Assembly (NCBI RefSeq): GCF_949987515.2
Contig: NC_082689.1
Span: forward strand, 105,996,957-106,060,956
Direction of reading: 5' to 3'
DNA length: 64,000 nucleotides
Origin: Delphinus delphis
Lineage: Eukaryota > Chordata > Mammalia > Artiodactyla > Delphinidae
The notes below the pieces were generated by a model. That model was not told the origin of the DNA and searched no databases. It was given only the letters and a program-made list of their open reading frames with translations. The position numbers and the translations under genes are program-made. Each line of letters starts with the position of its first letter. Within the stretch, counting starts at the first letter, position 1. Positions 14,428-55,600 of the stretch are shown in pieces.

Positions 14428-16639
14428 CCTATTTGATCTATTCAGATCTATTTAGATTTATTTAGAACTAAAACACTTTCTTGTAGACAGAAGATAGTTG
14501 GATCGTGAATATTTGTCTATTCTACCAATTTTTGCATTTTCATTGTAAAAAAATACATTTCCATTTTAAGCAATTACTGATACAGAATAAATGACTTCTG
14601 CCATTTTACTATTTGTTTTATGTATGTTTTATAGCTTTTGTCCTTTAACTCCATTACTGCCTCTTCTCATGTTTAGTTGTTTCTTACAATGATACATTTT
14701 GATTCCCTTCTTATTTCATTCTGTGGATATTCTATAGATATTTTATTTCTGGGTAGTACGGGGATGACATGACATCTTAAAATTATAACAATCTATTTTG
14801 AATTGATGCCAACTTAACTTCAATTGCATACAAAAACTGTACTCCTGTTCAGCTACTTCCCCATCCCTTTGTGTTACTGATTTCACAAATTACATTTTTA
14901 TACATTGTGCACCTGATAACATTGATTTATAATTATTTTACATATTTGTATTTTAAATTCTATAATAAATAAAAAATGAGGTTACAAAACAAAATTGCAA
15001 TAATCACTTTTTCATTTGCCCATGTATTTACCTTTACCATAGATCTTTATATCTTTAGATGGATTTGAGTTATTGTGTAGCATCCTTTCATGATGTAGCT
15101 TGTGTAGCTGATAGGCTAGGTCTTGTGGTGTTGAACTCAGTCAGCTTTTATCTGGAATTATCTTAATTTCTCCTTTGTTTTTGAAGGACAGTTTTGTTGG
15201 ATATAGAGTTTTCAATGACAGACCTTTTCTTAGCACTTTAAGTACATTATCCCACTGCCTTCTAGCCTCCAAGTTTTCTGATGAGAAATTGACTGAAAAA
15301 ATCATTGACAACCCCTTGTATTTGAGTCACTTTTCTCTTGCTGCTTTCAAGATTCTCTCTTCATCTTTAGTGTTTGACAATAATGTATCTTGGGTTATAA
15401 TGTATCTTGGTGTGGGTATCTTTGAGTTTATTCTAGGTGGAATTTGTTGACCTTGTTGACTTTGTAAAATTTAGCCTTTCATAAAATTTAGGAAGTTTTC
15501 AGCCATTATGTCTTCAAATATTCTTCTGTCCCTTTATCTCTGTTTCCCTTTTGGGATTCCCACAATGTGTATTGGTCTGCTCTATGGGATTTTACAAGTC
15601 ATACAGCCTTTCTTCACTTTTCTTCATTATTTTCTCTTTCTGTTCCTCAGATGTGGCAGTTTCATTTGTCATTCTACTTTAATATTTGTTTCCTTCTCTC
15701 AGTTTCTCTAATCTTCTTCTGAACTCCTCTTGTGTAATTTCCATTTCAGTTATTGTGCTTTTTAGCTCCAGAATTACATTTTAGCTCCTTTTAATAATAT
15801 ATATATATCTTTATTAATATTATCATTTTGTTTATACATTTTTCTGTCTTTGCCCATGTCTTTCCTTAGTGCTTTGAAGGCTTTTAAACAATTGTTTTGA
15901 AGTCTTTGTCTAGCAAGTCCAATATCTCAGTTTCTTCACATATATTATCTGTTGATTTATTCTGTTCCTTTGAATGAGCCAAGCTTTCTTATTTCTTTGT
16001 GCGCATTGTGATTTTATGTTGAAAACTGGACGCTGGAACCTTATAATGTGGTAACTCTACAGATCAGATTCTCCCTGTTCCCAAGGGTTTGCTGTTTGTT
16101 GACTATCATAGGGATCAGCCTGAGGTGAAAGTTTAAGGTCTTCTCAGGTTTCTTCTGAGCCTATGATTCTTTCTCAGCACTTAACAGTGCCTTTATAAAA
16201 TCCCTATGCACGTTGTTATTTTTGAATGTCCACTAAAACATATATAGCTCCTTGAGATCTTCTGGAAGCCACTTCAGTTGGTGTGGGTTGACACAGCGGC
16301 AGTCATCCTCTGTATCTGCACCCCTGTGATCAGAAGCAGGAGTCTGCAATTCAGCACAGAACTCCAACATTTAGAGGACATGGTGCTTATTGCCCATGCT
16401 ACCTCCAGCAAGCCATGCCAGAAACATGATGCCCATCCCCACAGATGTCCGCCACAAGCCTGTGGGGAAGGGGCTGAGTAGATGCTACCACTCTGAAGGC
16501 TCACATTGACCAGGCTCAACCACAGATTCCCATCCAGGCTTTCCTTAGAAACTGACAGTGCTCAAAGGAAATAAAGAGTTCCAAAACAGTCACTTTTGAC
16601 ACTTTCTGCCTGGATAATTGATGCTTATTTTGTTGGTTT

Positions 16640-16925
16640 GTTTGTTTTAATTTTTGAATTTTATTTAATTTATTTTTTTGTACAGCAGTTTCTTATTAGT
16701 TATCCATTTTATACATGTTAGTGTATATATGTCAATCCCAATCTCCCAATTCATCCCACCATCACCACCCCCCCCCCCACCACTTTCCCCCTTTGGGGTC
16801 CATACGTTTGTTCTCTACATCTGTGTCTGTATTTCTGCCCTGCAAACTGGTTCATCTGTACCATTTTTGTAGGTTCCACGTATATATGTTAATGTACGAT
16901 ATTTGTCGATGTTTTTTTCAATGGT
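16640..16925 (-). mobile_element. 5'-truncated L1 3' fragment
   Basis: A T-rich left end followed by the complement of the L1 3' UTR: TTAGTTATCCATTTTATACA, TATATATGTCAATCCCAATC, a C-rich run at 16768-16779, CTGCAAACTGGTTCATCTGT. It matches the 3' end of L1-c (33700-33948) rather than L1-b, so it belongs to that 3' UTR type. Confidence 0.85.
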
Positions 16926-17734: not shown

Positions 17735-19151
17735 GAAGATATATTTTTAAATTTAATTTTGTGGGAATTATCAGTTGCTTGCTCATCAGTGAGTCAAGTT
17801 GATATTTAAACATCATTTGGCTTGACAAAACTTATCCTGAAACTCACACAAAATTTATACTAAACTAAAAGACATTAGAAACCCAAGAAAAAGATAAGGA
17901 AAGATCTGTGTGTTAAGGTAAATATTCAGTAGTGTTTGGCAGCACTGGCCAATATAATTTGAGGAAGAAGAAATGAGGTTTAAATGTTGGTAAGAGAAGG
18001 CTATCATTATTAATAGTTATCTATTAATATTCAAGACTACAAACTGTAAGCTATTAGAACTAATGAGTATTTAGTAAATTGCCAGGATATAAGATAAATC
18101 TTAGGAGAATCAAAAGCTCTCATTGAAATAATCAATTATAATTTTTAACTTCAAAAAGATGCAATTTATAATGAAGTTAAAATCAGCAGGGTTAACAAAT
18201 GTTAAAAATTACCTGTCAATAAAATTGAAAAGAAGATCTAAAGAACTATTAAATATAGTAAAGACAAAAAATAACTTAATAAACAGAAAAGTCATCATAC
18301 TTCTACATGAAAAATCTCAATGTTAAAGTATGTTAAATATTTCAAAATCTATAAATGTATGCACTTCACATTAAAATCTTTGTAGTATAATTTATGAAAT
18401 TTGTATGATTATTTATGTAAGAATATCTACATTTTCTTAATAGAATAATAAAGAGAATTGCATTTTCAAGTATTAACACACAGTATGAAGCTATGTTAAT
18501 TAAAATTGTGGGATATGATTCAAAACTGACAATTTTGTCAATAGAACAGATTAGAGAATCTAAAATATGTAGAATTAGCTGCATTATAATGGTGGCAGTT
18601 CTAATTAGTGGCAAGTAGATTGACTTTTCAATATGTGTCATTGGGATATTTGGCTAAATTTTTAGAAAAAATATTAATTCCTACCTTACCCATACTCAAA
18701 ATAAATGGTGGATGGATTTTAAAAATCAAATGTAAAAAATATAATCATAAAATCATCAAGAAAAATTTAGCAAATTGCACATTGAGCTTGAGGATAAGTA
18801 AGGCCTTAGCAAGTAAGACAAAATTTTAGAAACTATAAAAAAGATTAAGAGATTTGCCTATAAAAAAACTAAAAGAGCTGGGAAGTGAAAGGTACCATAA
18901 ATAAAATAAGAACCCATATACTGGAATAAAATACTTTCTGCTGGTACAGCTAATGGCTATGCAAATTAATATCTAAACTTATAAAATAATTCTGTCAATA
19001 AAAGAAGAAATACAAATAACCCAACAGGTAAGTCAACAAAGGATAAAATCTGACAATTCACAAAGTAAGACATTTATATGGTCAATGAATAGATGAAAAT
19101 ATGCCCAACTTTACTAGCAATTAAAGAAAAGCAAATTAAAATAGCAAAGTC

Positions 19152-19350
19152 GGGCTTCCCTGGTGGCGCAGTGGTGGAGAGTCCGCCTGCCAATGCAGGG
19201 GACACGGGTTTGTGCCCCAGTCCGGGAAGATCCCACATGCTGCGGAGCAGCTGGGCCCGTGAGCCATGGCCACTGAGCCTGCACGTCCGGAGCCTGTGCT
19301 CCGCAACGGGAGAGGCCACAACAGTGAGAGGCCTACATACAAAAAAAAAA
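19152..19350 (+). mobile_element. CHR-2-type SINE, locus A
   Basis: Starts GGGCTTCCCTGGTGGCGCAG, contains a B-box-like GGTTTGTGCCCCAG, and ends in 10 or more A residues. The 14-bp sequence AAAATAGCAAAGTC is present exactly at 19138-19151 and 19351-19364, a perfect target site duplication. The SINE therefore inserted into the ancient L1 here. It shares several variants with the SINE at 25943 (CCCCAGTCCGGG, CATGCTGCGG, GGCCACTGAG). Confidence 0.95.
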
Positions 19351-19355
19351 AAAAT

Positions 19356-19891
19356 AGCAAAGTCTATGCAGATTGGTAAGATTTTTCAGAGTTTGACAAT
19401 ATTGAGGGTTGCCATCAGGATGTGGAGATGGTGTCACTATTTTCACAAATTGTAGATACAAAGTGAAAATTAGTTCAGCCCCTTTGGGTTTTAGATGTGC
19501 ATAGCCTTTGACTCAGAAATTGTATTTTTCAGAGTTCATCTAGGGAAATATGTATGCACATGAACATGAATATGTGTGTGTGGTACCCCATTGTTTTGAA
19601 CAGTGAAATTGGAAATAATCTGTGAGAACAAACTGAGCACAGGAAAATAAATTATAATACAGCTGTTGTTAGGAATAATATGGAGTCATTAAGAGGAATG
19701 TATTGTCTGTATGTACTGACACAGAAATGTAGGTAAGCTTTAATATTAGAGTATAAAGCAGAGTGGTAGAGGTATACAAATACCAAGATCCCCTCTGTGC
19801 CTAGAACAAAGAAGTTCAGAAAGATGTTCTCCTATTAACAGTAGTTACCTCTAAAATTAGTGTTTGAAGACAGGGAATAGGCTCGAGAGAA
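19356..19891 (+). repeat. Duplicated segment A (source copy)
   Basis: 536 bp of ancient L1 sequence directly after the SINE. It recurs at 26155-26690 with about 13 substitutions counted by eye and no indels. Beyond 19891 the two copies share nothing. This copy keeps both target duplications and continues into L1 3' UTR on the right, so it is the ancestral locus. Confidence 0.95.
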
Positions 19892-20105
19892 TAGAAAAGG
19901 AGCTGAAGAGAAATTATTATTTTCTCTCTGGATTTTTCTACATCATTCTTACCATAAGCAAGTATTTGTCCTATAATTAAAATGAAAAAGCTCACAAATT
20001 AAAAAACAATATGAACTAATGATAGGCATGTACTGAGTGTTAATAAAGGACAGAGGAGGTCTCAGAGTAGCAGACAAAAGTTCCCAGGGAAGTTGGTTTA
20101 AAGAT

Positions 20106-20207
20106 AATACATGTGGCTGATTCACTTCACTGAACAGCAGAAACTAACACAACATTGTAAAGCAACTATACTCCAATAAACAAATAATAAAAATAAAGAT
20201 AAAGAAC
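20106..20207 (+). mobile_element. L1 3' terminal fragment
   Basis: GCTGATTCACTTCACTGAAC, GCAGAAACTAACACAACATT, GTAAAGCAACTATACTCCAA and TAAA-rich tail. This is the last 100 bp of a standard cetartiodactyl L1, severely 5'-truncated. Confidence 0.85.
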
Positions 20208-20302
20208 CGGGAATTCCCTGGAGGTCCGGGGGTTAGGACTTTGTGTTTCCGCTGCAGGGGGCACGGGTTCAATCCCTGATCAGGGAAATAAGATCCCAAA
20301 TG
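20208..20302 (+). mobile_element. Partial CHR-type SINE
   Basis: The tRNA-like half only: GGGAATTCCCTGGAGGTCCG, GCAGGGGGCACGGGTTCAAT, CCCTGATCAGGGAAATAAGA. The tail is missing, so it is truncated or diverged at 3'. Confidence 0.8.
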
Positions 20303-23310: not shown

Positions 23311-24300
23311 GCTTCCCCAAGGACTTGGGATTTCACTCACTATTTACTTTCCCTAATTTAGATGCATATGAGTAATTTACCTTAATGTCAGCCTTCTGGA
23401 AAAGAAAAGTCTGGCTCTATTTCTATATTTCTTGTCTAAAAGGTTCCACCATTGTAGGACTAGAATAGTAAAATACAGAATATGTCTGCAATTAAAAAAA
23501 AAGCACTAAGTGAGTTCTGAGATTTTCTTTTGTTTGCTATACAATTTAAAGACACCTTTAAATTCCCTGCTATTTGTGAATCTGAGGTATATAGGGATGT
23601 GGCAGAAAATGATCAGGTCATGATGCTTTTATACAAATTGTTCCAAAAGATTATACTTGGGTTAGTGCTTTTAATTCAGTTTTGTCCCATGGAGTTCAAA
23701 TATGAGAGTTCTATCTACAACTTATGTGAAATAATTCATCAAAGGTAAAGGGATTAATGGTATGTCTTGCTCTATACTCACTCCTACATTTGACATTCAA
23801 CAAATGTGCATGACTGTCTCCTAATTTGGGGATGGCATCATGTCCAGGGGCTTAATATGGCTACATTGCTTATACTGAGGTTCACCTAGGAGCTGTGCTG
23901 GTCGAAAGTTAATTTAAAACATAAGCTTCATGAAAATAAAAGTATCTTCTTCCATTTGTTCTGGTAGGAGAGTGATCTTGCATTCCTTGTGATCCCCATG
24001 TCACTGTTTAATAATGTATATTGTGAGTGATTGGCTAGTATCCTACCCAAAGGAAGATGATTTTAGAATTTGGGCTTTTTTTCTGTTAATAAATGGAAGG
24101 ATTTTACATCTGCAAGAAAGCTTAGGTACTTCTGTTCATTCATTGTGCATATATTTTTACCATTTTTTAAACAAAGAGTTCTATTTAATTTTTTACATAA
24201 GAATGTAAAGCTTCTCTGTGTCAAAATGTACTATAAGCTAAACAGGAGACACTAGGAAAAAATGCTTGCTAACATGTATAAAACAAAGTTGCTATTCTTA
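23311..24300. other. Nothing recognised
   Basis: About 1 kb, AT-rich. Open frames up to about 72 codons near 23530-23748 show no known motif. Confidence 0.5.
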
Positions 24301-24525
24301 TTTTAAAATTTTTATTGGGGTATAGTTGCTTTACAATGTTGTGTTAGTTTCTGCTGTAAAATGAAGTGAATCAGCTATATGTATACATATATCCCTTCCC
24401 TCTTGGACCTCCCACCCCCCACCCATCCCTCCTATCTAGGTCACCACAGAGCACTGAGCTGAGCTCCCTGTGCTATACAGCAGGTTCCCACTAGCTATCT
24501 ATTTTACACATGGTAGTGTGTTGTT
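24301..24525 (-). mobile_element. 5'-truncated L1 3' UTR fragment
   Basis: Complement of an L1 3' end: TTTATTGGGGTATAGTTGCT, GTGTTAGTTTCTGCTGTAAA, GAAGTGAATCAGCTATATGT, GACCTCCCACCCCCCACCC, CTCCCTGTGCTATACAGCAG. Confidence 0.9.
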
Positions 24526-25566: not shown

Positions 25567-25942
25567 AATCTTGAGTGTCTTATACTTCTTTGTACGCTTG
25601 ACAATTCTCAGCATAGTGTTTAGCACAGTGTCATTCACATATAGGACAATAACTTGAAAATAACCTAAAGTCACAAAAAAAAAACCCACTAAAAACTGGA
25701 TTTAAACTTTTTGGGAAATTAAGATCTTTAAAAACCATTGTGCATATGAGGGAAAAAATTTTAAAGCACATACACAGTTCCAAGCAGGACATATGCCCCA
25801 AAAAGGCATGAGACAGTCTTAAGCCTTCACCTTGGGCTGAACTGAAAGCTTAGAACATGCTGTTAATTGGTGAAGTTCTGAGAGAGGTAGCTATTTTCTC
25901 AGTTTTGAAACAAACATCTTTAGACAAAAAAACTGGGAAAGA

Positions 25943-26154
25943 GGGCTTCCTTGGTGGTGCAGTGGTTGAGAGTCCGCCTGCCGATGCAGGGGACACGGGT
26001 TCATGCCCCAGTCCGGGAAGATCCCACATGCTGCGGAGCGGCTGGGACCGTGAGCCATGGCCACTGAGCCTGCGCATCCAGAGCCTGTGCTCCACAATGG
26101 GAGAGGCTGCAACAGTGAGAGGCCCATGTACCAGAAAAAAAAAAAAAAAAAAAA
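25943..26154 (+). mobile_element. CHR-2-type SINE B1
   Basis: Starts GGGCTTCCTTGGTGGTGCAG and has a poly(A) of about 20. It then continues without a target duplication into the sequence that follows the SINE at 19152. It shares the locus-A variants CCCCAGTCCGGG and GGCCACTGAG. Confidence 0.93.
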
Positions 26155-26690
26155 AGCAAAGTCTATGCAGATTGGTAAGATTTTTCAGAGTTTGACAATA
26201 TTGAGGGTTGCCATCGGGCTGTGGAGATGGTGTCATTATTTTCACAAATTGTAGATACAAAGTGAAAATTAGTTCAGCCCCTTTGGGTTTTAGATGTGCA
26301 TAGGCTTTGACTCAGAAATTGTAGTTTTCAGACTTCATCTAGAGAAATATGTATGCACATGAACATGAATATGTGTGTATGGTACCCCATTGTTTTGAAC
26401 AGTAAAATTGGAAATAATCTGTGAGAACAAACTGAGTACAGGAAAATAAATTATAATACGGCTGTTGTTAGGAATAATATGGAGTCATTAAGAGGAATGT
26501 ATTGTCTGTATGTACTGACACAGAAATGTAGGTAAGCTTTAATATTAGAGTATAAAGCAGAGTGGTAGAGATATACAAATACCAAGAACCCCTCTGTGCC
26601 TAGAACAAAGAAGTTCAGAAAGATGTTCTCCTATTAACAGTAGTTACCTCTAAAATTAGTGTTTGAAGACAGGGAATAGGCTCGAGAGAA
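26155..26690 (+). repeat. Duplicated segment B (derived copy)
   Basis: Same length and order as 19356-19891. It begins exactly at the SINE poly(A) and ends at CTCGAGAGAA, with unrelated sequence after. The left target duplication found at locus A is absent here, so this copy was made from locus A after the SINE had landed there. Confidence 0.93.
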
Positions 26691-26696
26691 GCTCAA

Positions 26697-26907
26697 GGGC
26701 TTCCCTGGTGGCGCAGTGGTTGAGAGTCTGCCTTTCGATGCAGGGGACATGGGTTTGTGCCCCTGTCCAGGAAGATCCCACATGCTGCGGAGCGGCTGGG
26801 CCTGTGAGCCATGGCCGCTGAGCCTGCACGTCCGGAGCCTGTGCTCCGCAACGGGAGAGGCCACAACAGTGAGAGGCCCATGTACTGCAAAAAAAGAAAA
26901 AAAAAAA
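26697..26907 (+). mobile_element. CHR-2-type SINE B2
   Basis: Full-length: GGGCTTCCCTGGTGGCGCAG to GTACTGC, with an A-rich tail interrupted by G. Left neighbour GAGAAGCTCAA and right neighbour AAAAGTGGGAAAA do not match, so it has no duplication of its own. Confidence 0.93.
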
Positions 26908-26920
26908 GAAAAAGTGGGAA

Positions 26921-28592
26921 AATACAGGCCCTTCAAAGGAACAAAATAAATCTCCAGAAACCATCTCTGAAGAAACACAGGCATCAGACTTTCTAGACAA
27001 AGAGTATAAAACAACTGTCTTAATATGTTTAGAGAACTAAAGGAGAACATGAACACAGAACTATAGAATATGAAATAGGAAGAAAATGAGAATATCAAAA
27101 AAAGATAAATATCATTAAAAAGAAGAGTCAAACAAATTTTGGAGCTGAAAAATACAATAACTCAATTGTAAAATTCATGAAAGAAAACTCATAAGTCTTT
27201 AGGCAGAAAAAAACAATCAGCCAACCTAAGGATAGGACAATTGAAATTCCTGAGTCTGAGAATAGGGGGAAATAGACTCTAGAATAGTAATGTGGTGTAA
27301 GAGATTGTGGGACACCATAAAGTCAACCAATATATGGATTATGGGAGTCCTAGAAGGGAAAAAATATAGAGAAAGGGCAGTGATTATTTGAAGAAGTAAT
27401 GGCCAGAAACATCCCAAATTTGAGGGAAGACATGAATCTACAAATTCAAGAAGCCAATGAAATCCTAGTAGGATAAGTCCAAAGAGGCCCACACAGTGAG
27501 ATATTAAAAGCAAACAACTGGACAACGACTTGAAAGCAGCAAGAAAATAGTAATTTGTCACTTAAAAAGGAATTTTAAGGAAAATTACTAGCAGATTTAT
27601 TAGCAGAAACCTTGGAGGCCCGGAGGCAGTGGTATGATATATGTAAAATAGCTAAAGAAAAAATAAAAAAACGCTAAAAATCAAGAATTCTATATCTGAT
27701 AAAACTGTCCTTCGAATATGAGGGAGAAATTAAGACATTCCAAAATAAGCAAAATTTGAGGGTGTTCATTACCACTACATCTGCCCTACTAGAAATGCTA
27801 AATGCCGTTCTACTAGTTGAAATGAAAGGATACTAGACTGTTACTCAAAGTCATATAAAAATATTATATATAGTTTATTTTAAAGTTATATACATGGACA
27901 AATATAAAAACCAGTATAATTGTAATTCTGATTTGTAATTCCACTTTTCATTTCTACAGAATTTTAAAGATAAATGCATATAAAATAACTTAAAATCTAT
28001 GTTAATGAGTACAAAATGAATATAGATGTAGTTTGTAACATCAGTAACATAAAGTAGGGGAGAGGTTCAGGTATAAGTAGAGATTTTGAATGCAACTGAA
28101 GTTAAGTTGGTATCAATTTAAAATAAATATTAAAAATTTTAGGATGTTATATCAAATCTCTATGGTAACCCTAAAGACTATTGCTATAGAATATATGGAA
28201 AGGAAAGAAAAGGGAATCAAAATAATCACTGCAAAAGAAAATCTTTAAACAAATAAGAAAGCAGTAGCAGAGGAAATGAAGGACAAAAGAGCTAAAAGAC
28301 ATGCACAAAACAAATAACAAAATATGAAAACTCTTTCCATATCAGTAATTACTTTAAACATAAATGGATTAACTTCTCCAATCAAAAGATGTAACTGGAA
28401 GAATGAGTAAAAAAATGAGATCCACTACAAGCTATCTGCAAGAGTCTCAGTTTAGGTTTAAGAATATTCATACAAGGGAACTGAAAACAATTTAAAAGAT
28501 GTATTCCATACAAATATTAATCAAAAGAGAGCAAAATAAGGATGGTGATACTAATGTCACACAAGAGACTTTAAGTCAAAAACAGTTACATT
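26921..28592 (+). mobile_element. Ancient L1, 5' half (ORF1 and start of ORF2)
   Basis: A diverged plus-strand L1. ORF1-like text appears around 27000-27660 (AGAGCTGAAAAATACAATAA-like, AGCAGAAACCTTGGAGGCC, TCAAGAATTCTATATCTGAT, CATTCCAAAATAAGCAAA). The ORF2 start is near 28335 (TCAGTAATTACTTTAAACAT, AAATGGATTAACTTCTCC) and runs into the endonuclease until interrupted at about 28592 by L1-c. The missing continuation begins at 33955. Frames are closed throughout. The CHR block at 25.9-26.9 kb lies at its left edge and may also be inside it. Confidence 0.8.
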
Positions 28593-28782
28593 AGTTTTTT
28601 ACTGAACTCTACCCACCAGAGCAACAGCCAGCTCCACCCACCACCAGTCCCTCCCATCAGGAAACTTACACAAGACTCTTAGATAGCCTCATCCACCAGA
28701 GGGCAGACAGCAGAAGCAAGAAGAACTACAATCCTGCAGCCTATGGAACAGAAAAAACCACATTCACAGAAAGATAGACAAG

Positions 28783-29684
28783 ATGAAAAGGCAGAGGGCT
28801 ATGTACCAGATAAAGTAACAAGATAAAACCCTGGAAAAATAACTAAATGAAGTGGAGAGAGGCAACTTTCCAGAAAAAGAATTCAGAATAATGATAGTGA
28901 AGATGATCCAGGACCTCGGAAAAAGAATGGAGGCAAAGATGGAGAAGATGCAAGAAATGTTTAACAACGATCTAGAAGAATTAAAGAACAAACAAACAGA
29001 GATGAACAATACAATAACTGAAATGAAAAATACACTGGAAGGAACCAATACTAGAATAACTGAGGCAGAAGAATGGATAAGTGACCTGGAAGACAGAATG
29101 GTGGAATTCACTGCTGCAGAACACACTGAAGAAAAAAGAATGAAAAGAAATGAAGACAGCCTAAGAGACCTCTGGGACAACATTAAATGCAAAAGCATTC
29201 ACATTATAGGGATCCCAGAAGGAGAAGAGAGAGAGAAAGGACCCAAGAAAATATGTGGAGAGATTATAGTTAAAAACTTCCCTAACAACATGGGAAAGGA
29301 AATAGCCACCCAAGTCCAGGAAGCACAGAGAGTCCCATACAGAATAAACCCAAGGAGAAACACGCCAAGACACATAGAAATCAAAGTGGCAAAAATTAAA
29401 GAAAAATTATTGAAAGCAGCAAGGGAAAAATGACAAATAACATACAAGGGAACTCCCATAAGGTTAACAGATGATTTCTCAGGAGGAACTCTACAAGCCA
29501 GAAGGGAGTGGCATGATATACTTAAAGTGATGAAAGGGAAGAACCTACAACCAAGATTACTCTACCTGGCAAGAATCTCATTCAGATTTGATGGAGAAAT
29601 CAAAAGCTTTACAGACAAGCAAAACTAAGAGAAGTCAGCACCACCAAACCAACTTTATAACAAATGCTAAAGGAACTTCTCTAA
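28783..29684 (+). pseudogene. L1-c ORF1, frameshifted
   Basis: ATG at 28783 is followed within a dozen codons by a stop. A long open stretch of 193 codons then starts at 28852 (MERGNFPEKEFRIMIVKMI). It covers the coiled coil (MEAKMEKMQEMFNNDLEELK), the RRM-like region (RDLWDNIKCKSIHIIGIPEG) and VPYRINPRRNTPRHIEIKV. A TGA at 29431-29433 ends it. The C-terminal codons up to the TAA at 29682-29684 lie in another frame, consistent with the total length not being a multiple of three. Confidence 0.9.
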
Positions 29685-29742
29685 GTGAGAAACACAAGAG
29701 AAGAAAAGGACCTACCAAAACAAATCCAAAACAATTAAGAAA

Positions 29743-32700
29743 ATGGTAATAGGAACATACATATTGATAATTACCTTAAACGGGAATGGATTAAATGCTC
29801 CAACGAAAAGACATAGGTTTGCTGAATGGATACAAAAACAAGACCCATATATGTGCTGTCTACAAGAGACCCACTTCAGACCTAGGGACACATACAGACT
29901 GAAAGTGAGGAGAAGGAAAAAGATATTCCATGCAAATGGAAATAAAAAGAAAGTTGGGGGGCTACCCTGGTGGCTCAGTGGTTGAGAGTCCACCTGCCTT
30001 TGCAGGGGACATGGGTTTGTGCCCCGGTCCGGGAGGATCCCACATGCCACGGAGTGGCTGGACCCGTGAGCCATGGCTGCTGAGCCTGTGCGTCCAGGGC
30101 CTGTGTTCCACAATGGGAGAGACCACAACAGTGAGAGGCCCGCGTACCACAAAAAATAAAAAAAAGAAAGCTGGAGTGGCAATACTCATATCTGATAAAA
30201 TAGACTTTAAAATAAAGAATGTTACAAGAGACAAGGAAGGTCACTACAAAATGATCAAGGGATCAATCCAAGAAGAATATATAACAATTATAAATATATA
30301 TGCACCCAAAATAGGAGCACCTCAATACATAAAGCAACTGCTAACAGTTATAAAAGGGGAAATTGACAGTAACACAATAATAGTGGGGGACTTTAACACC
30401 TCACTTACACCAATGGACAGATCATCCAAACAGAAAATTAATAAGGAAACACAAGCTTTAAATGACACAAGAGACCAGATAGATTTAACTGATATTTATA
30501 GGACATTCCATCCAAAAACAGCAGATTACACTTTCTTCTCAAATGTGCATGGAACATTCTCCAGGATAGATCACATCTTGGGTCACAAATCAAGCCTCAG
30601 TAAATTTAAGAAAATTGAAATCATATCAAGCATCTTTTCTGACCACAACACTATGAGATTAGAAATCAATTACAGGGGAAAAAAAACGTAAAAAACACAA
30701 ACACATGGAGGCTAAACAATACGTTACTAAATATCCAAGAGATCACTGAAGAAATCAAAGAGGAAATCAAAAAATACCTAGAGACAAATGACAATGAAAA
30801 CACGATGATCCAAAACCTATGGGATGCAGCAAAAGCAGTTCTAAGGGGGAAGTTTATAGCTATACAAGCCTACCTCAAGAAACAAGAAAAATATGAAGTA
30901 AACAATCTAACCTTACACCTAAAGGAACTAGAGAAAGAAGAACAAACAAAACCTAAAGTTAGCAGAAGGAAAGAAATCATAAAAATCAGAGCAGAAATAA
31001 ATGAAATAGAAACAAAGAAAACAATAGCAAAGATCAATAAAACTAACAGCTGGTTCTTTGAGAAGGTAAACAAAATTGATAAACCATTAGCTAGACTCAT
31101 CAAGAAAAAGAGAGAGAGGACTCAGCTCAATAAAATTAGAAATGAAAAAGGAGAAGTTACAACAGACACAGCAGAAATACAAAGCATCCTAAGAGACTAC
31201 TACAAGCAACTCTATGCCAATGAAATGGACAACATGGAAGTAATGGACAAATTCTTAGAAAGGTATAACCTTCCAAGACTGAACCAGGAAGAAACAGAAA
31301 ATATGAACAGATCAATCATCTTCCAACAAACAAAAGTCCAGGACCAGACGGCTTCACAGGTGAATTCTATCAAACATTTAGAGAAGAGCTAACACCCATC
31401 CTTCTCAAACTCTTACAAAAAATTGCAGAGGAAGGAACACTCCCAAACTCATTCTATGAGGCCACCATCACCCTGATACCAAAACCAGACAAAGATACTA
31501 CAAAAAAAGAGAAAATTACAGACCAGTATCACTGATGAATATAGATGCAAAAATCCTCAACAAAATACTAGCAAACAGAATCCAACAACACATTAAAAGT
31601 ACTGTACACCATGATCAAGTGGGGTTTATCCCAGGAATGCAGGGATTCTTCAATATAAGCAAATCAATCAATGTGATACACCATATTAACAAATTGAAGA
31701 ATAAAAACCGTATGATCATCTCAATAGATGCAGGAAAAGGTTTTGAAAAATTCAACACCCATTTATGATAAAAACTCTCCAGAAAGTGGGCATAGAGGGA
31801 AGCTACCTCAATATAATGAAGTCCATATATGACAAACCCAGAGCAAACTTCATTCTCAATGATGAAAAACTGAAAGCATTTCCTCTAAGATCAGGAACAA
31901 GACAAGGATGTCCACTCTCACCACTATTATTCAACATAGTTTTGGAAGGTCTAGCCAGGGCTATCAGAGAAGAAAAAGAAATACAAATTGGAAAAGAAGT
32001 AAAACTGTCACTCTTTGCAGATGACATGATACTATACATAGAGAATCCTAAAGATGCCACCAGAAAACTACTAGAGCTAATCAATGAATTTGGTAAAGTT
32101 GCAGGATACAAAATTAATGCATAGAAATCTCTTGCATTCCTGTACACTAATGATGAAAGAGAAATTAAGGAAACACTCCCATTTACCATTGCAACAAAAA
32201 GAATAAAATACCTAGGAATAAACCTGCCGAGGGAGACAAAAGACCTGTGTGCAGAAAACTATAAGCCACTGATGAAAGAAATTAAAGATGATACCAACAG
32301 ATGGTATATTGATTCTTCCAATCCATGTTCTTGGATTGGAAGAATCAATATTGTGAAAATGACTATACTACCCAAAGCAATCTACAGTTGCAATGCAATC
32401 CCTGTCAAATTACCAATGGCATTTTTTTACGGAACTAGAACAAAAAGTCTTAAAATCTGTATGGAGACACAAAAAGACCCGGAATAGCCAAAGCAGTCTT
32501 GAGGGAAAAAATGGAGCTGGAGGAATCTGACTTCAGACTATACTATAAAGCTACAGTAATCAAGACAGTATGGTACTGGCACAAAAACAGAAATATAGAT
32601 CAATGGAACAGGATAGAAAGCCCAGAGATAAACCCATGCAGATGTGGTCAACTAATTTATGACAAAGGAGGCAAGAACTTACAATGGAGAAAAGACCTCC

Positions 32701-33735
32701 ACTTCAATAAGTGGTGCTGGGAAAACTGGACAGCTACATGTAAAAGAATGAAATTAGAACACTCCCTAACACCATACACAAAAATAAACTCAAAATGGAC
32801 TAGAGACCTAAATGTAAGACCGGACACTATAAAACTCTTAGAGGAAAACATAGGAAGAACACTCTTTGACATAAATCACAACAAGATCTTTTTTGACCAC
32901 CTCCTAGAGTAATGGAAATAGAAACAAAAATAAACAAATGGGACGTAATGAAACTTAAAGGCTTTTGCACAGCAAAGGAAACCATAAACAAGATGAAAAG
33001 ACAACCCTCAAAATGGGAGAAAATATTTGCAAATGAATCAACGGACAGAGGATTAGTCTCCAAAATATATAAACAGCTCATGCAGCTCAATATTAAAAAA
33101 AGCAAACACCTCAATCCAAAAATGGACAGAAAAGCTAGACATTTCTCCTAAGAAGACATACAGATGGCCAAGAAGCATATGAAAAACTGCTAATATCACT
33201 AATTATTAGAGAAATGCAAATCAAATCTGCAATGAGGTATCACCTCACACTAGTTAGAATGGGCATCATCAGAAAATCTATAAACAACAAATGCTGGGGA
33301 GAGTGTGGAGAAAAGGGATCCCTCTTGCACTGTTGGTGGGAATGTAAATTGATATATCCACTATGGAGAACAGTATGGAGGTCCCTTAAAAAACTAAAAC
33401 TAGAATTACCATGTGACCCAGCAATCCCACTATTGGACATATACCCAGAGAAAACCATAATTCAAAAAGACACCAATGTTTATTGCACACCAATGTTTAT
33501 TGCAGCACTATTTACAATAGCCAGGTCATGGAAGCAACCTAAATGCCCATCAACAGATGAATGGATAAAGAACATGTGGTACATATAAACAACAGAATAT
33601 TACTCAGCCATAAAACGGAACGAAATTGGGTCGTTTGTAGAGACATGGATGGATCTAGAGACTGTCATACAGAGTGAAGTAAGTCAGCAAGGGAAAAATA
33701 AATATCGTATATTAAGGCATATATGTGGAACCTAG
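29743..33735 (+). pseudogene. L1-c ORF2, interrupted by a SINE and several frameshifts
   Basis: The start codon is at 29743 (MVIGTYILIITLNGNGLNAP). The endonuclease is split by the CHR SINE at 29958-30160, then continues to 30691 with KAGVAILISDKIDFKI, VGDFNTSLTPMDRSS, FSRIDHILGH and [12 protein letters not shown]. The linker (30805-31392) and reverse transcriptase follow: [48 protein letters not shown], and the FADD catalytic motif at 32014-32025. The C-terminal region ends around HICGT and a TAG at 33733-33735. Part of the region before the palm, around 31320-31540, is in shifted frames. The active-site motif is intact, but the protein is not translatable as one unit. Confidence 0.92.
29958..30160 (+). 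mobile_element. CHR-2-type SINE inside L1-c ORF2
   Basis: Starts GGGCTACCCTGGTGGCTCAG and ends GCGTACCAC plus an A-rich tail. The flanks AAAAGAAAGTTGG (29945-29957) and AAAAGAAAGCTGG (30162-30174) differ at one base and form the target duplication. This is the third level of nesting. Confidence 0.93.
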
Positions 33736-52677: not shown

Positions 52678-55600
52678 ATGGGAATAGGAAGATAGATATT
52701 GATAATTACCTTAAATGTAAATGGACTAAATGCTCCCACCAAAAGACACAGATTGGCTGAATGGATACAAAAACAAGACGCATATATATATGCTGTCTAC
52801 AGGATACCCACTTCAGACCTAGAGACACATACAAACTGAAAGTAAGGGGATGGAAAAATATATTCCATGCAAATGGAAACCAAAAGAAAGCTGGAGTAGC
52901 AATTCTCATATCAGACAAAATAGACTTTAAAATAATCAAAGAAGGACACTATATAATGATCAAGGGATTGATCCAAGAAGAAGATATAACAATTGTAAAT
53001 ACTTATGCACCCAACATAGGAGCACCTCAATACATAAGGCAAATACTAACAGCCATAAAAGGAGAAGTCAACCGAAATAAATGAAAAAGAAATGAAGGAA
53101 ATGATAGCAAAGATCAATAAAACTAAAAGCTGGTTCTTTGAGCAGATAGACAAAATTGATAAACCATTAGCCAGACTCATCCAGACAAAAAGGGAGAAGA
53201 CTGAAAGCAATAGAATTTGAAATGAAAAAGGAGAAGTAACAACTGACACTGCAGAAATACAAAAGATCATGAGAGATTACTACAAGCAACTCCATGCCAA
53301 TAAAATGGACAACCTGGAAGAAATAGACTAATTCTTAGAAATGCACAACCTGCGGAGACTGAATCAGGAAGAAATAGAAAATACGAACAGACCAATCACA
53401 AGCACTGAAATTGAAACTGTGATTAAAAATCTTCCAACAAACAAAAGCCCAGGACCACATGGCTTCACAGGAGAATTCTATCAAACATTTAGGGAAGAGC
53501 TAACACCTATCCTTCTCAAACACTTCCAAAATATAGCAGAGGGAGGAACACTCCCAAACTCATTCTACGAGGCCACCATCACCCTGCTACCAAAACCAGA
53601 CAAGGATGTCACAAAGAAAGAAAACTACAGGCCAATATCACTGATGAAGATAGATGCAAAAATCCTCAACAAAATACTAGCAAACAGAATCCAACAGCAC
53701 ATTAAAAGGATCATACACCATGATCAAGTGGGGTTCATTCCAGGAATGCAAGGATTCTTCAATATATCCAAATCAATCAGCGTGATATACCATATTAACA
53801 AATTGAAGGAGAAAAACCATATGATCATCTCAAGAGATGCAGAAAAAGCTTTTGACAAAATTCAACACCCATTTATGATAAAAACCCTGCAGAAAGTAGG
53901 CATAGAGGGAACTTTCCTCAACATAATAAAGGCCATATATGACAAACCCACAGCCAACATCGTCCTCAATGGTGAAAAACTGAAAGCATTTCCACTAAGA
54001 TCAGGAACAAGACAAGGTTGCCCACTCTGACCATTCTTATTCAACCTAGTTTTGGAAGTTTTAGCCACAACAATCAGAGAAGAAAATGAAATAAAAGGAA
54101 TCCAAATCGGAAAAGAGGAAGTAAAGCTGTCACTGTTTGCAGATGACATGATACTCTACATAGAGAATCCTAAAGATGCTACCAGAAAACTACTAGAGCT
54201 AATCAATGAACTTGGTAATGTAGCAGGATACAAAATTAATGCACAGAAATCTCTGGCATTCCTATACGCTAATGATGAAAAATCTGAAAATGAAATCAAG
54301 AAAACACTCCCATTTACTATTGCAACAAAAAGAATAAATTATCTAGGAATAAACCTATCTAAGGAGACAAAAGACCTGTATGCAGAAAATTATAAGACAC
54401 TGATGAAAGAAATGAAAGATGATACAAATAGATGGAGAGATATCCCATGTTCTTGGATTGGAAGAATTAACATTGTGAAAATGACTCTACTACTCAAAGC
54501 AATCTACAGATTCAATGCACTCCCTATCAAACTACCACTGGCATTTTTCACAGAACTAGAATAAAAGTTTCACAATTTGTATGGAAACTCAAAAGACCCT
54601 GAATAGCCAAAGCAATCTTAAGAACGAAAAATGGAGCTGGAGGAATCAGGCTCCTTGACTTCAGACTATACTACAAAACTACAGTAATCAAGACAGTATG
54701 ATTCTGGCACAAAAACAGAAAGATAGATCAAGGGAACAGGATAGAAAGCCCAGAGATAAACCCATGCACATATGGTCACTTTATCTTTGATAAAGGAGGC
54801 AGGAATGTACAGTGGAGAAAGGACAGCCTCTTCTATAAGTGGTGCTGGGAAAAGTGGACAGGTACATGTAAAAGTATGAGATTAGAACACTCCCTAACAG
54901 TATTCACAAAAGTAAGCTCAAAATGGATTAAAGACCTAAATGTAAGGCCAGAAACTATCAAACTCTTAGAGGAAAACATAGACAGAACACTCTATGACAT
55001 AAATCACAGCAAGGTCCTTTTTGACCCACCTCCTAGAGAAATGGAAATAAAAACAAAAATAAACAAATGGGACCTAATGAAACCTCAAAGCTTTTGCACA
55101 GCAACGGAAACCATAAACAAGACCAAAAGACAACCCTCAGAATGGGATCAAATATTTGCAAATGAAGCAAGTGACAAAGGATTAATCTCCAAAATTTATA
55201 AGCAGCTCATGCAGCTCAAAAACAAAAAAACCAAACAACCCAATCCGAAAATGGGCAGAACACCTAAATAGACATTTCTCCAAAGAAGATATACAGATTG
55301 TCAACAAACACATGAAAGAATGCTCAACATCATTAATCATTAGAGAAATGCAAATCAAAACTACAATGAGATATCATCTCACACCAGTCAGAATGGCCAT
55401 CATCAAAAAATCTAGAAACAATAAATGCTGGAGAGGGTGTGGAGAAAAGGGAACACTCTTGCACTGCTGGTGGGAATGTGAATCGGTACAGCCACTATGG
55501 AGAACAGTATGGAGCTTCCTTAAAAAAGTACAAATAGAACTACCATATGACCCAGAAATCCCACTACTGAGCATATACCCTGAGAAAACCATAATTCAAA

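What the first reader, a model, noticed from the sequence alone, without database searches (positions are those of the whole stretch)
25928..26920. SINE / L1-tail / SINE chimera: probable template-switch retrotransposition of a SINE read-through transcript
Seen: the 536 bp after SINE B1 repeat the 536 bp after the SINE at 19152 with about 13 mismatches and no gap. At locus A that SINE has a perfect 14-bp target duplication; at B the left duplication is gone and the homology starts at the SINE itself. The copied part stops at CTCGAGAGAA, then six unrelated bases, then a complete second SINE with its own tail. Only the outermost flanks (25928-25940 and 26908-26920) look like a duplication. Inference: a transcript starting at the locus-A SINE promoter ran through its poly(A) into the flanking ancient L1. 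During L1-driven reverse transcription that began on another SINE RNA, the enzyme switched to this transcript. The result is one insertion carrying 536 bp of transduced DNA. Template switching is established for L1 enzymes (U6-L1 chimeras, for example); SINE-initiated transduction of this size with a second SINE as the 3' donor is, as far as I know, not commonly described.
Basis: partly seen in the sequence, partly recalled or inferred. Interest (0 to 1): 0.78.

Follow-up and report, generated by a model that had tools for sequence, protein, structure and literature searches.

The report
Nearby DNA copied between two SINEs
A stretch of about 535 bases was copied from one place to another 6.8 thousand bases away and now lies between two short repeat elements; it most likely got there by local DNA repair using the repeats as landing pads rather than through an RNA copy, so it is a neat but probably not extraordinary genome scar.

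Summary
The 535 bp after SINE A (19357-19891) recur after SINE B1 (26156-26690) with 13 mismatches and no gap, followed by GCTCAA and a full-length SINE B2. A is the source: it keeps a perfect 14-bp target duplication, and B has only the downstream side. B's outermost flanks match at 12 of 13 bases, but a shared word as long as their 7-base core arose in 210 of 20,000 random pairs.

The proposed mechanism fits less well. A Pol III transcript from SINE A would meet five runs of four or more T, the first 28 nt past the tail. The donor lies 6.8 kb away on the same strand; a random donor would do so about 3 times in a million (assumed genome size). I favour local DNA-templated copying with SINE/SINE homology setting the left limit, either at a pre-existing SINE or while SINE B2 was being inserted. 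RNA template switching is not excluded: B2 starts exactly at its first base, as newly inserted SINEs usually do. SINE variants cannot decide where B1 comes from. The window's own genome did not answer in ten calls and no relative's genome was examined, so the empty-site test was not run.

The parts
19138..19151 (+). left copy of the 14-bp target duplication of SINE A
   Evidence: identical to 19351-19364
19152..19354 (+). SINE A with A-tail, at the donor locus
19351..19364 (+). right copy of the target duplication of SINE A; its last 8 bases GCAAAGTC also follow the tail of B1
19357..19891 (+). donor segment (probably part of an ancient L1) copied to locus B
   Evidence: 13 mismatches in 535, no gap; L1 nature: recall plus a weak frame match
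19382..19386 (+). first T5 run after SINE A, expected stop of a Pol III transcript
   Evidence: termination statement from a PMC9599045 passage
25928..25940 (+). left outer flank, candidate target duplication
   Evidence: 12 of 13 identical to 26909-26921; 7-base core about 1% by chance
25943..26155 (+). SINE B1 with A-tail
26156..26690 (+). copied segment at locus B
26691..26696 (+). junction bases GCTCAA (filler, or a diverged end of the copied segment)
26697..26908 (+). SINE B2, full length, with A-rich tail
26909..26921 (+). right outer flank, candidate target duplication

Best explanation
Local DNA-templated copying. A single SINE sat, or was just being inserted, at locus B. A broken or newly made strand that carried the start of this SINE paired with the related SINE A 6.8 kb away, copied on through its tail and 535 bp of flank, came off and was joined back to the start of the SINE at B with a few filler bases. 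This leaves a SINE (5' part from B, 3' part from A), the copied flank, then the complete SINE of B inside its own target duplication. Shown: source and direction, the copied segment, the SINE start as left limit, the junction bases, same strand and closeness. Inferred: that the template was DNA, the place of the switch inside the SINE, and the stage. The exact start of B2 at its first base is most easily explained if the event took place during B2's own insertion, when a free end lies exactly there.
For: Donor 6.8 kb away on the same strand (offsets 6791 and 6799). The copied part begins at a SINE start, and the presumed partners A and B2 are 94% identical over 182 bp. Six junction bases. Published human repair-mediated duplications: 824 of 1,136 with the donor within 5 kb; all 39 inspected proximal ones had repair signatures and none a poly(A)/T tract, while 6 of the 39 rows list a target duplication (PMC2671141, sections 6 and 7 read); in primates their rate follows L1 activity (passage). 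No transcript through five T runs is needed. Non-CpG divergence A-B1 in the SINE (3/144) equals that of the flank (13/535), compatible with one copying event.
Against: If the SINE at B was old, the return exactly to its first base is a coincidence, roughly 0.3-1.5% on target sizes that I assumed. The donor distance falls in the 'distant' class of PMC2671141, in which 17 of 29 inspected cases (all on other chromosomes) had a poly(A)/T tract; the insert with B1 (about 750 bp) exceeds the 619-bp maximum of the proximal class; and that survey filtered out nested transposons and transductions, so it is a biased yardstick for a SINE-bearing block. No variant pattern shows a B2-like 5' part and an A-like 3' part in B1: A-B1 share 4 and A-B2 share 5 mutated CpG states (my count), and B1 and B2 alone share CATGTAC just past the compared core, at the 3' end.
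Confidence: 0.55

Rival explanations
1. RNA template switching by the L1 enzyme: reverse transcription began on SINE B2 RNA, jumped at its 5' end with six untemplated bases onto an RNA holding SINE A and its flank, and inserted everything at once.
For: B2 and B1 both start exactly at the first SINE base, as 4,472 of 5,554 Alu insertions in one survey do (PMC2912911 passage); extra junction bases; outer duplication preceded by an A run; 452 Alu/L1 chimeras bounded by target duplications are reported (PMC13174262 section 12), so such joins occur.
Against: Five T runs in the supposed transcript; a donor 6.8 kb away on the same strand is about a 3-in-a-million coincidence for a donor drawn at random; no T run at the donor's end, the next being at 19920. 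A Pol II transcript would not be expected to start at the SINE.
Confidence: 0.2
2. Unequal crossing over between SINE A and a SINE at B made a 6.8-kb tandem duplication, and a later 6-kb deletion removed all but 535 bp of the second copy.
For: Same-family SINEs in direct orientation at both ends; explains the left limit and the outer duplication.
Against: Two events; the deletion must end at the first base of the SINE; no other stretch between A and B recurs at 93% or more over 80 bp. Matches of 77-89% from 20107-20298 and 24293-24519 to places elsewhere look like older repeat copies.
Confidence: 0.13
3. A haplotype of locus A once carried a second SINE after AGCTGAAG; the whole SINE-flank-SINE block then replaced the SINE at B by gene conversion, or moved by retrotransposition from the second tail.
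For: AGCTGAAG (19901-19908) lies just past the copied end, one mismatch from the bases before B2; 1.8% by chance.
Against: Locus A has no SINE there now; a loss of about 10 bases at B is needed as well.
Confidence: 0.05
4. Independent events: a copied segment, then SINE B2 as a separate later insertion.
For: The outer duplication is weak.
Against: B2 shows no shared word with its own immediate left flank, whereas the outermost flanks share 12 of 13 bases.
Confidence: 0.07

Closest known systems
Repair-mediated duplication by capture of proximal DNA (PMC2671141; abstract, sections 6, 7, 12 and some passages seen)
   Same: Short direct copy of nearby DNA, with filler at a junction, in repeat-rich sequence
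   Different: Donor 6.8 kb rather than under 5 kb, insert with B1 longer than the 619-bp maximum of the proximal class, and limits at SINE starts inside a candidate target duplication
L1 chimeras by template switching (U6/L1, Alu/L1; PMC13174262, abstract and sections 10 and 12 seen)
   Same: Two unrelated segments in one insert, bounded by a target duplication and a tail
   Different: Here the 3' partner is a SINE, the 5' partner includes 535 bp of genomic flank, and the donor is local
Class 1 and class 2 templated sequence insertions (PMC5110952, passages seen)
   Same: Genomic segment copied into a new place; class 1 with target duplication and tail, class 2 with repair junctions
   Different: Those are templated from distant regions; this block carries two SINEs and a neighbour's DNA
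Alu-Alu template switching and tandem Alu insertion (recalled; only search listings seen)
   Same: Repeat homology sets a limit of the rearranged piece
   Different: Here at most one limit is set by homology; the other is a blunt join with extra bases

Membership tests
Repair-mediated duplication (PMC2671141) | insert interrupts a transposable element | tested here: inconclusive
   B flanks match the stretch 15500-16900 (minus strand, L1-like) on both sides in the same order (right E 2e-35, left E 2e-4); joined flanks carry the match 17 nt into the left flank, bit score 135 against 133; but a short joined flank was matched or beaten by 85 of 1,000 random left flanks
Repair-mediated duplication (PMC2671141) | donor within 5 kb on the same chromosome | tested here: not met
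   6.8 kb; the 5-kb limit is the authors' own ad hoc cut-off
Repair-mediated duplication (PMC2671141) | microhomology, filler or deletion at the breakpoints | tested here: met
   six bases GCTCAA at the right junction; they could instead be a diverged end of the copied segment
Repair-mediated duplication (PMC2671141) | segment found at only one other place in the genome | not testable with these tools
   one other copy in the window; the genome did not answer in ten calls
L1-driven template-switch chimera | target duplication around the whole insert | tested here: inconclusive
   12 of 13 bases; 7-base core in 210 of 20,000 random pairs
L1-driven template-switch chimera | tail at the 3' end | tested here: met
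   A-rich tail of B2
   the start fits the SINE start, but five T runs lie inside and none at the end
L1-driven template-switch chimera | all parts absent together in an orthologous empty site | not testable with these tools
   no relative's genome was examined

The most novel reading that the evidence does not exclude
Insertion-coupled capture: while SINE B2 was being inserted by L1, the second strand, already begun on the new SINE, moved to the homologous SINE A nearby, copied its 3' part and 535 bp of flank, and then jumped back to the free end of the B2 cDNA. This would make SINE insertion itself a cause of short local duplications bounded by two SINEs.
Probability: 0.3. Interest if true: 0.55.

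Novelty: new variant of a known kind. Interest (0 to 1): 0.3.

Why it matters
If SINE insertion can pull in neighbouring DNA through SINE homology, dense SINE families would generate short local duplications, and SINE pairs inside one outer duplication could be read as records of repair during insertion. In the ordinary case it is one more local repair copy, useful as a caution: SINE-bounded duplications with local donors should not be read as RNA transductions without a comparison of donor distances.

Tried and rejected
Testing B1's origin by SINE variants: 7 full-length copies compared; the 4 partial hits (8444, 39741, 10875, 46936) and the weak short one at 20249 were left out. A-B1 differ at 3 non-CpG and 12 CpG sites, A-B2 at 3 and 8, B1-B2 at 4 and 16, so likeness does not tie B1 to A rather than to another SINE. 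Dating the outer duplication: at 2.4% divergence, at least one mismatch in 14 is expected in 29% and at least two in 4% of cases, which does not decide. Larger duplication: no other pair between A and B at 93% or more over 80 bp. Origin of the filler: AAGCTCAAGG occurs nowhere else in the window. A 26-base piece of the segment had no exact match in genome contigs, which says little because that collection is of bacteria and archaea. A search for six phrases on SINE or Alu transduction gave two papers, one from another field; this does not show that the thing is not in print. Mismatches cluster in the first 305 bp (11 of 13, p 0.051); not pursued. Passages of PMC12016303 gave nothing on local donors.

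Full report
What is there. SINE A starts at 19152, between perfect 14-bp duplications (19138-19151, 19351-19364). The 535 bp from 19357 to 19891 recur at 26156-26690 with 13 mismatches and no gap. Before the copy lies SINE B1 (25943), after it GCTCAA and SINE B2 (26697), all on the plus strand. Beside this pair, a search for pairs of at least 93% identity and 80 bp in the window listed only a 2.3-kb L1-like pair and one SINE pair.

Direction. A is the source. It keeps both copies of its target duplication, while B has only the last bases of the right copy (GCAAAGTC) after the tail of B1. A reading frame from 55186, which I take for L1, matches the left flank of A (E 2e-6) and, when the SINE is taken out, continues about 70 nt past the join (E 1e-6); the extension is weak, with 35% identity over the whole match.

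One insert at B. The outer flanks match at 12 of 13 bases (25928-25940, 26909-26921), five of them an A run. A shared word of 7 in such a place occurred in 210 of 20,000 random pairs. B2 shows no shared word with its own immediate left flank. An L1-like stretch on the minus strand at 15500-16900 matches the right flank well (E 2e-35) and the left flank weakly (E 2e-4), in the same order; joining the flanks carries the match 17 nt into the left one, with hardly any gain in score (135 against 133 bits). Against this, a short joined flank was matched or beaten by 85 of 1,000 random left flanks. So the single-insert reading is likely but not proved.

Age and SINE bodies. Non-CpG divergence A-B1 in the SINE (3 of 144) equals that of the flank (13 of 535), as expected if both were copied together. 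But A-B2 is also 3 of 144, and CpG sites differ more between A and B1 (12 of 38) than between A and B2 (8 of 38). A and B1 share two states seen in none of the other five copies (68A, 121A); B1 and B2 alone share 41G and CATGTAC just past the compared core. These are at CpG sites, where chance sharing is easy. The SINE bodies neither support nor exclude that B1 comes from A.

Why not a SINE transcript. Five runs of four or more T lie on the sense strand of the segment in both copies, within 243 nt of the tail of SINE A, the first a T5 28 nt past the tail. [quoted passage not shown] That the SINE here behaves like Alu is inferred, and how often Pol III would read through five such runs was not measured or looked up. 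The donor's end at 19891 has no T run; the next T4 is at 19920. A Pol II transcript could run through, but would not be expected to start at the SINE.

Why local DNA copying. Locus A is 6.8 kb from B and on the same strand. With a genome of 2.3-2.7 billion bases (assumed), a random donor would lie so near and in this orientation about 3 times in a million. In the human genome, 824 of 1,136 insertions found by one survey had a donor within 5 kb; the 39 proximal ones inspected all had repair signatures and none a poly(A)/T tract (PMC2671141). Two cautions: that survey removed nested transposons and transductions beforehand, and by its cut-off 6.8 kb counts as distant, a class in which 17 of 29 inspected cases, all with donors on other chromosomes, did have such a tract. 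The paper links the rate in primates to L1 activity (passage).

What stays open. B2 starts exactly at its first base. Copying into an old SINE would hit that base only by chance; an RNA switch, or an event during B2's insertion, gives it for free, since most new Alu copies start at the first nucleotide (4,472 of 5,554; PMC2912911 passage). I therefore hold DNA copying at 0.55 in all, with about half of that for the insertion-coupled form, and RNA switching at 0.2. The bases before B2 may not be filler: AGCTGAAG begins 10 bases past the last copied base in the donor (1.8% by chance).

Limits. The window's genome did not answer in ten calls, relatives were not examined and no other whale sequence was at hand, so no empty site, no intermediate and no count of similar blocks could be obtained.

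Noticed in passing
1-2327 and 53074-55400: An L1-like pair in opposite orientation, 98.2% identical over 2.3 kb, probably younger than most repeats around; pieces at 28609-33724 match others at 79-85%.
   Followed up: no
19357-19891 / 26156-26690: 11 of the 13 mismatches lie in the first 305 bp (p 0.051); possibly chance or a later exchange between the copies.
   Followed up: partly
45259-45042 (minus): Another SINE of the same family with a 15-bp target duplication AAGAGTCTACAGTCT, a normal single insertion for comparison.
   Followed up: partly
19892-19931: Donor sequence just past the copied end holds AGCTGAAG, one mismatch from the bases preceding SINE B2.
   Followed up: partly
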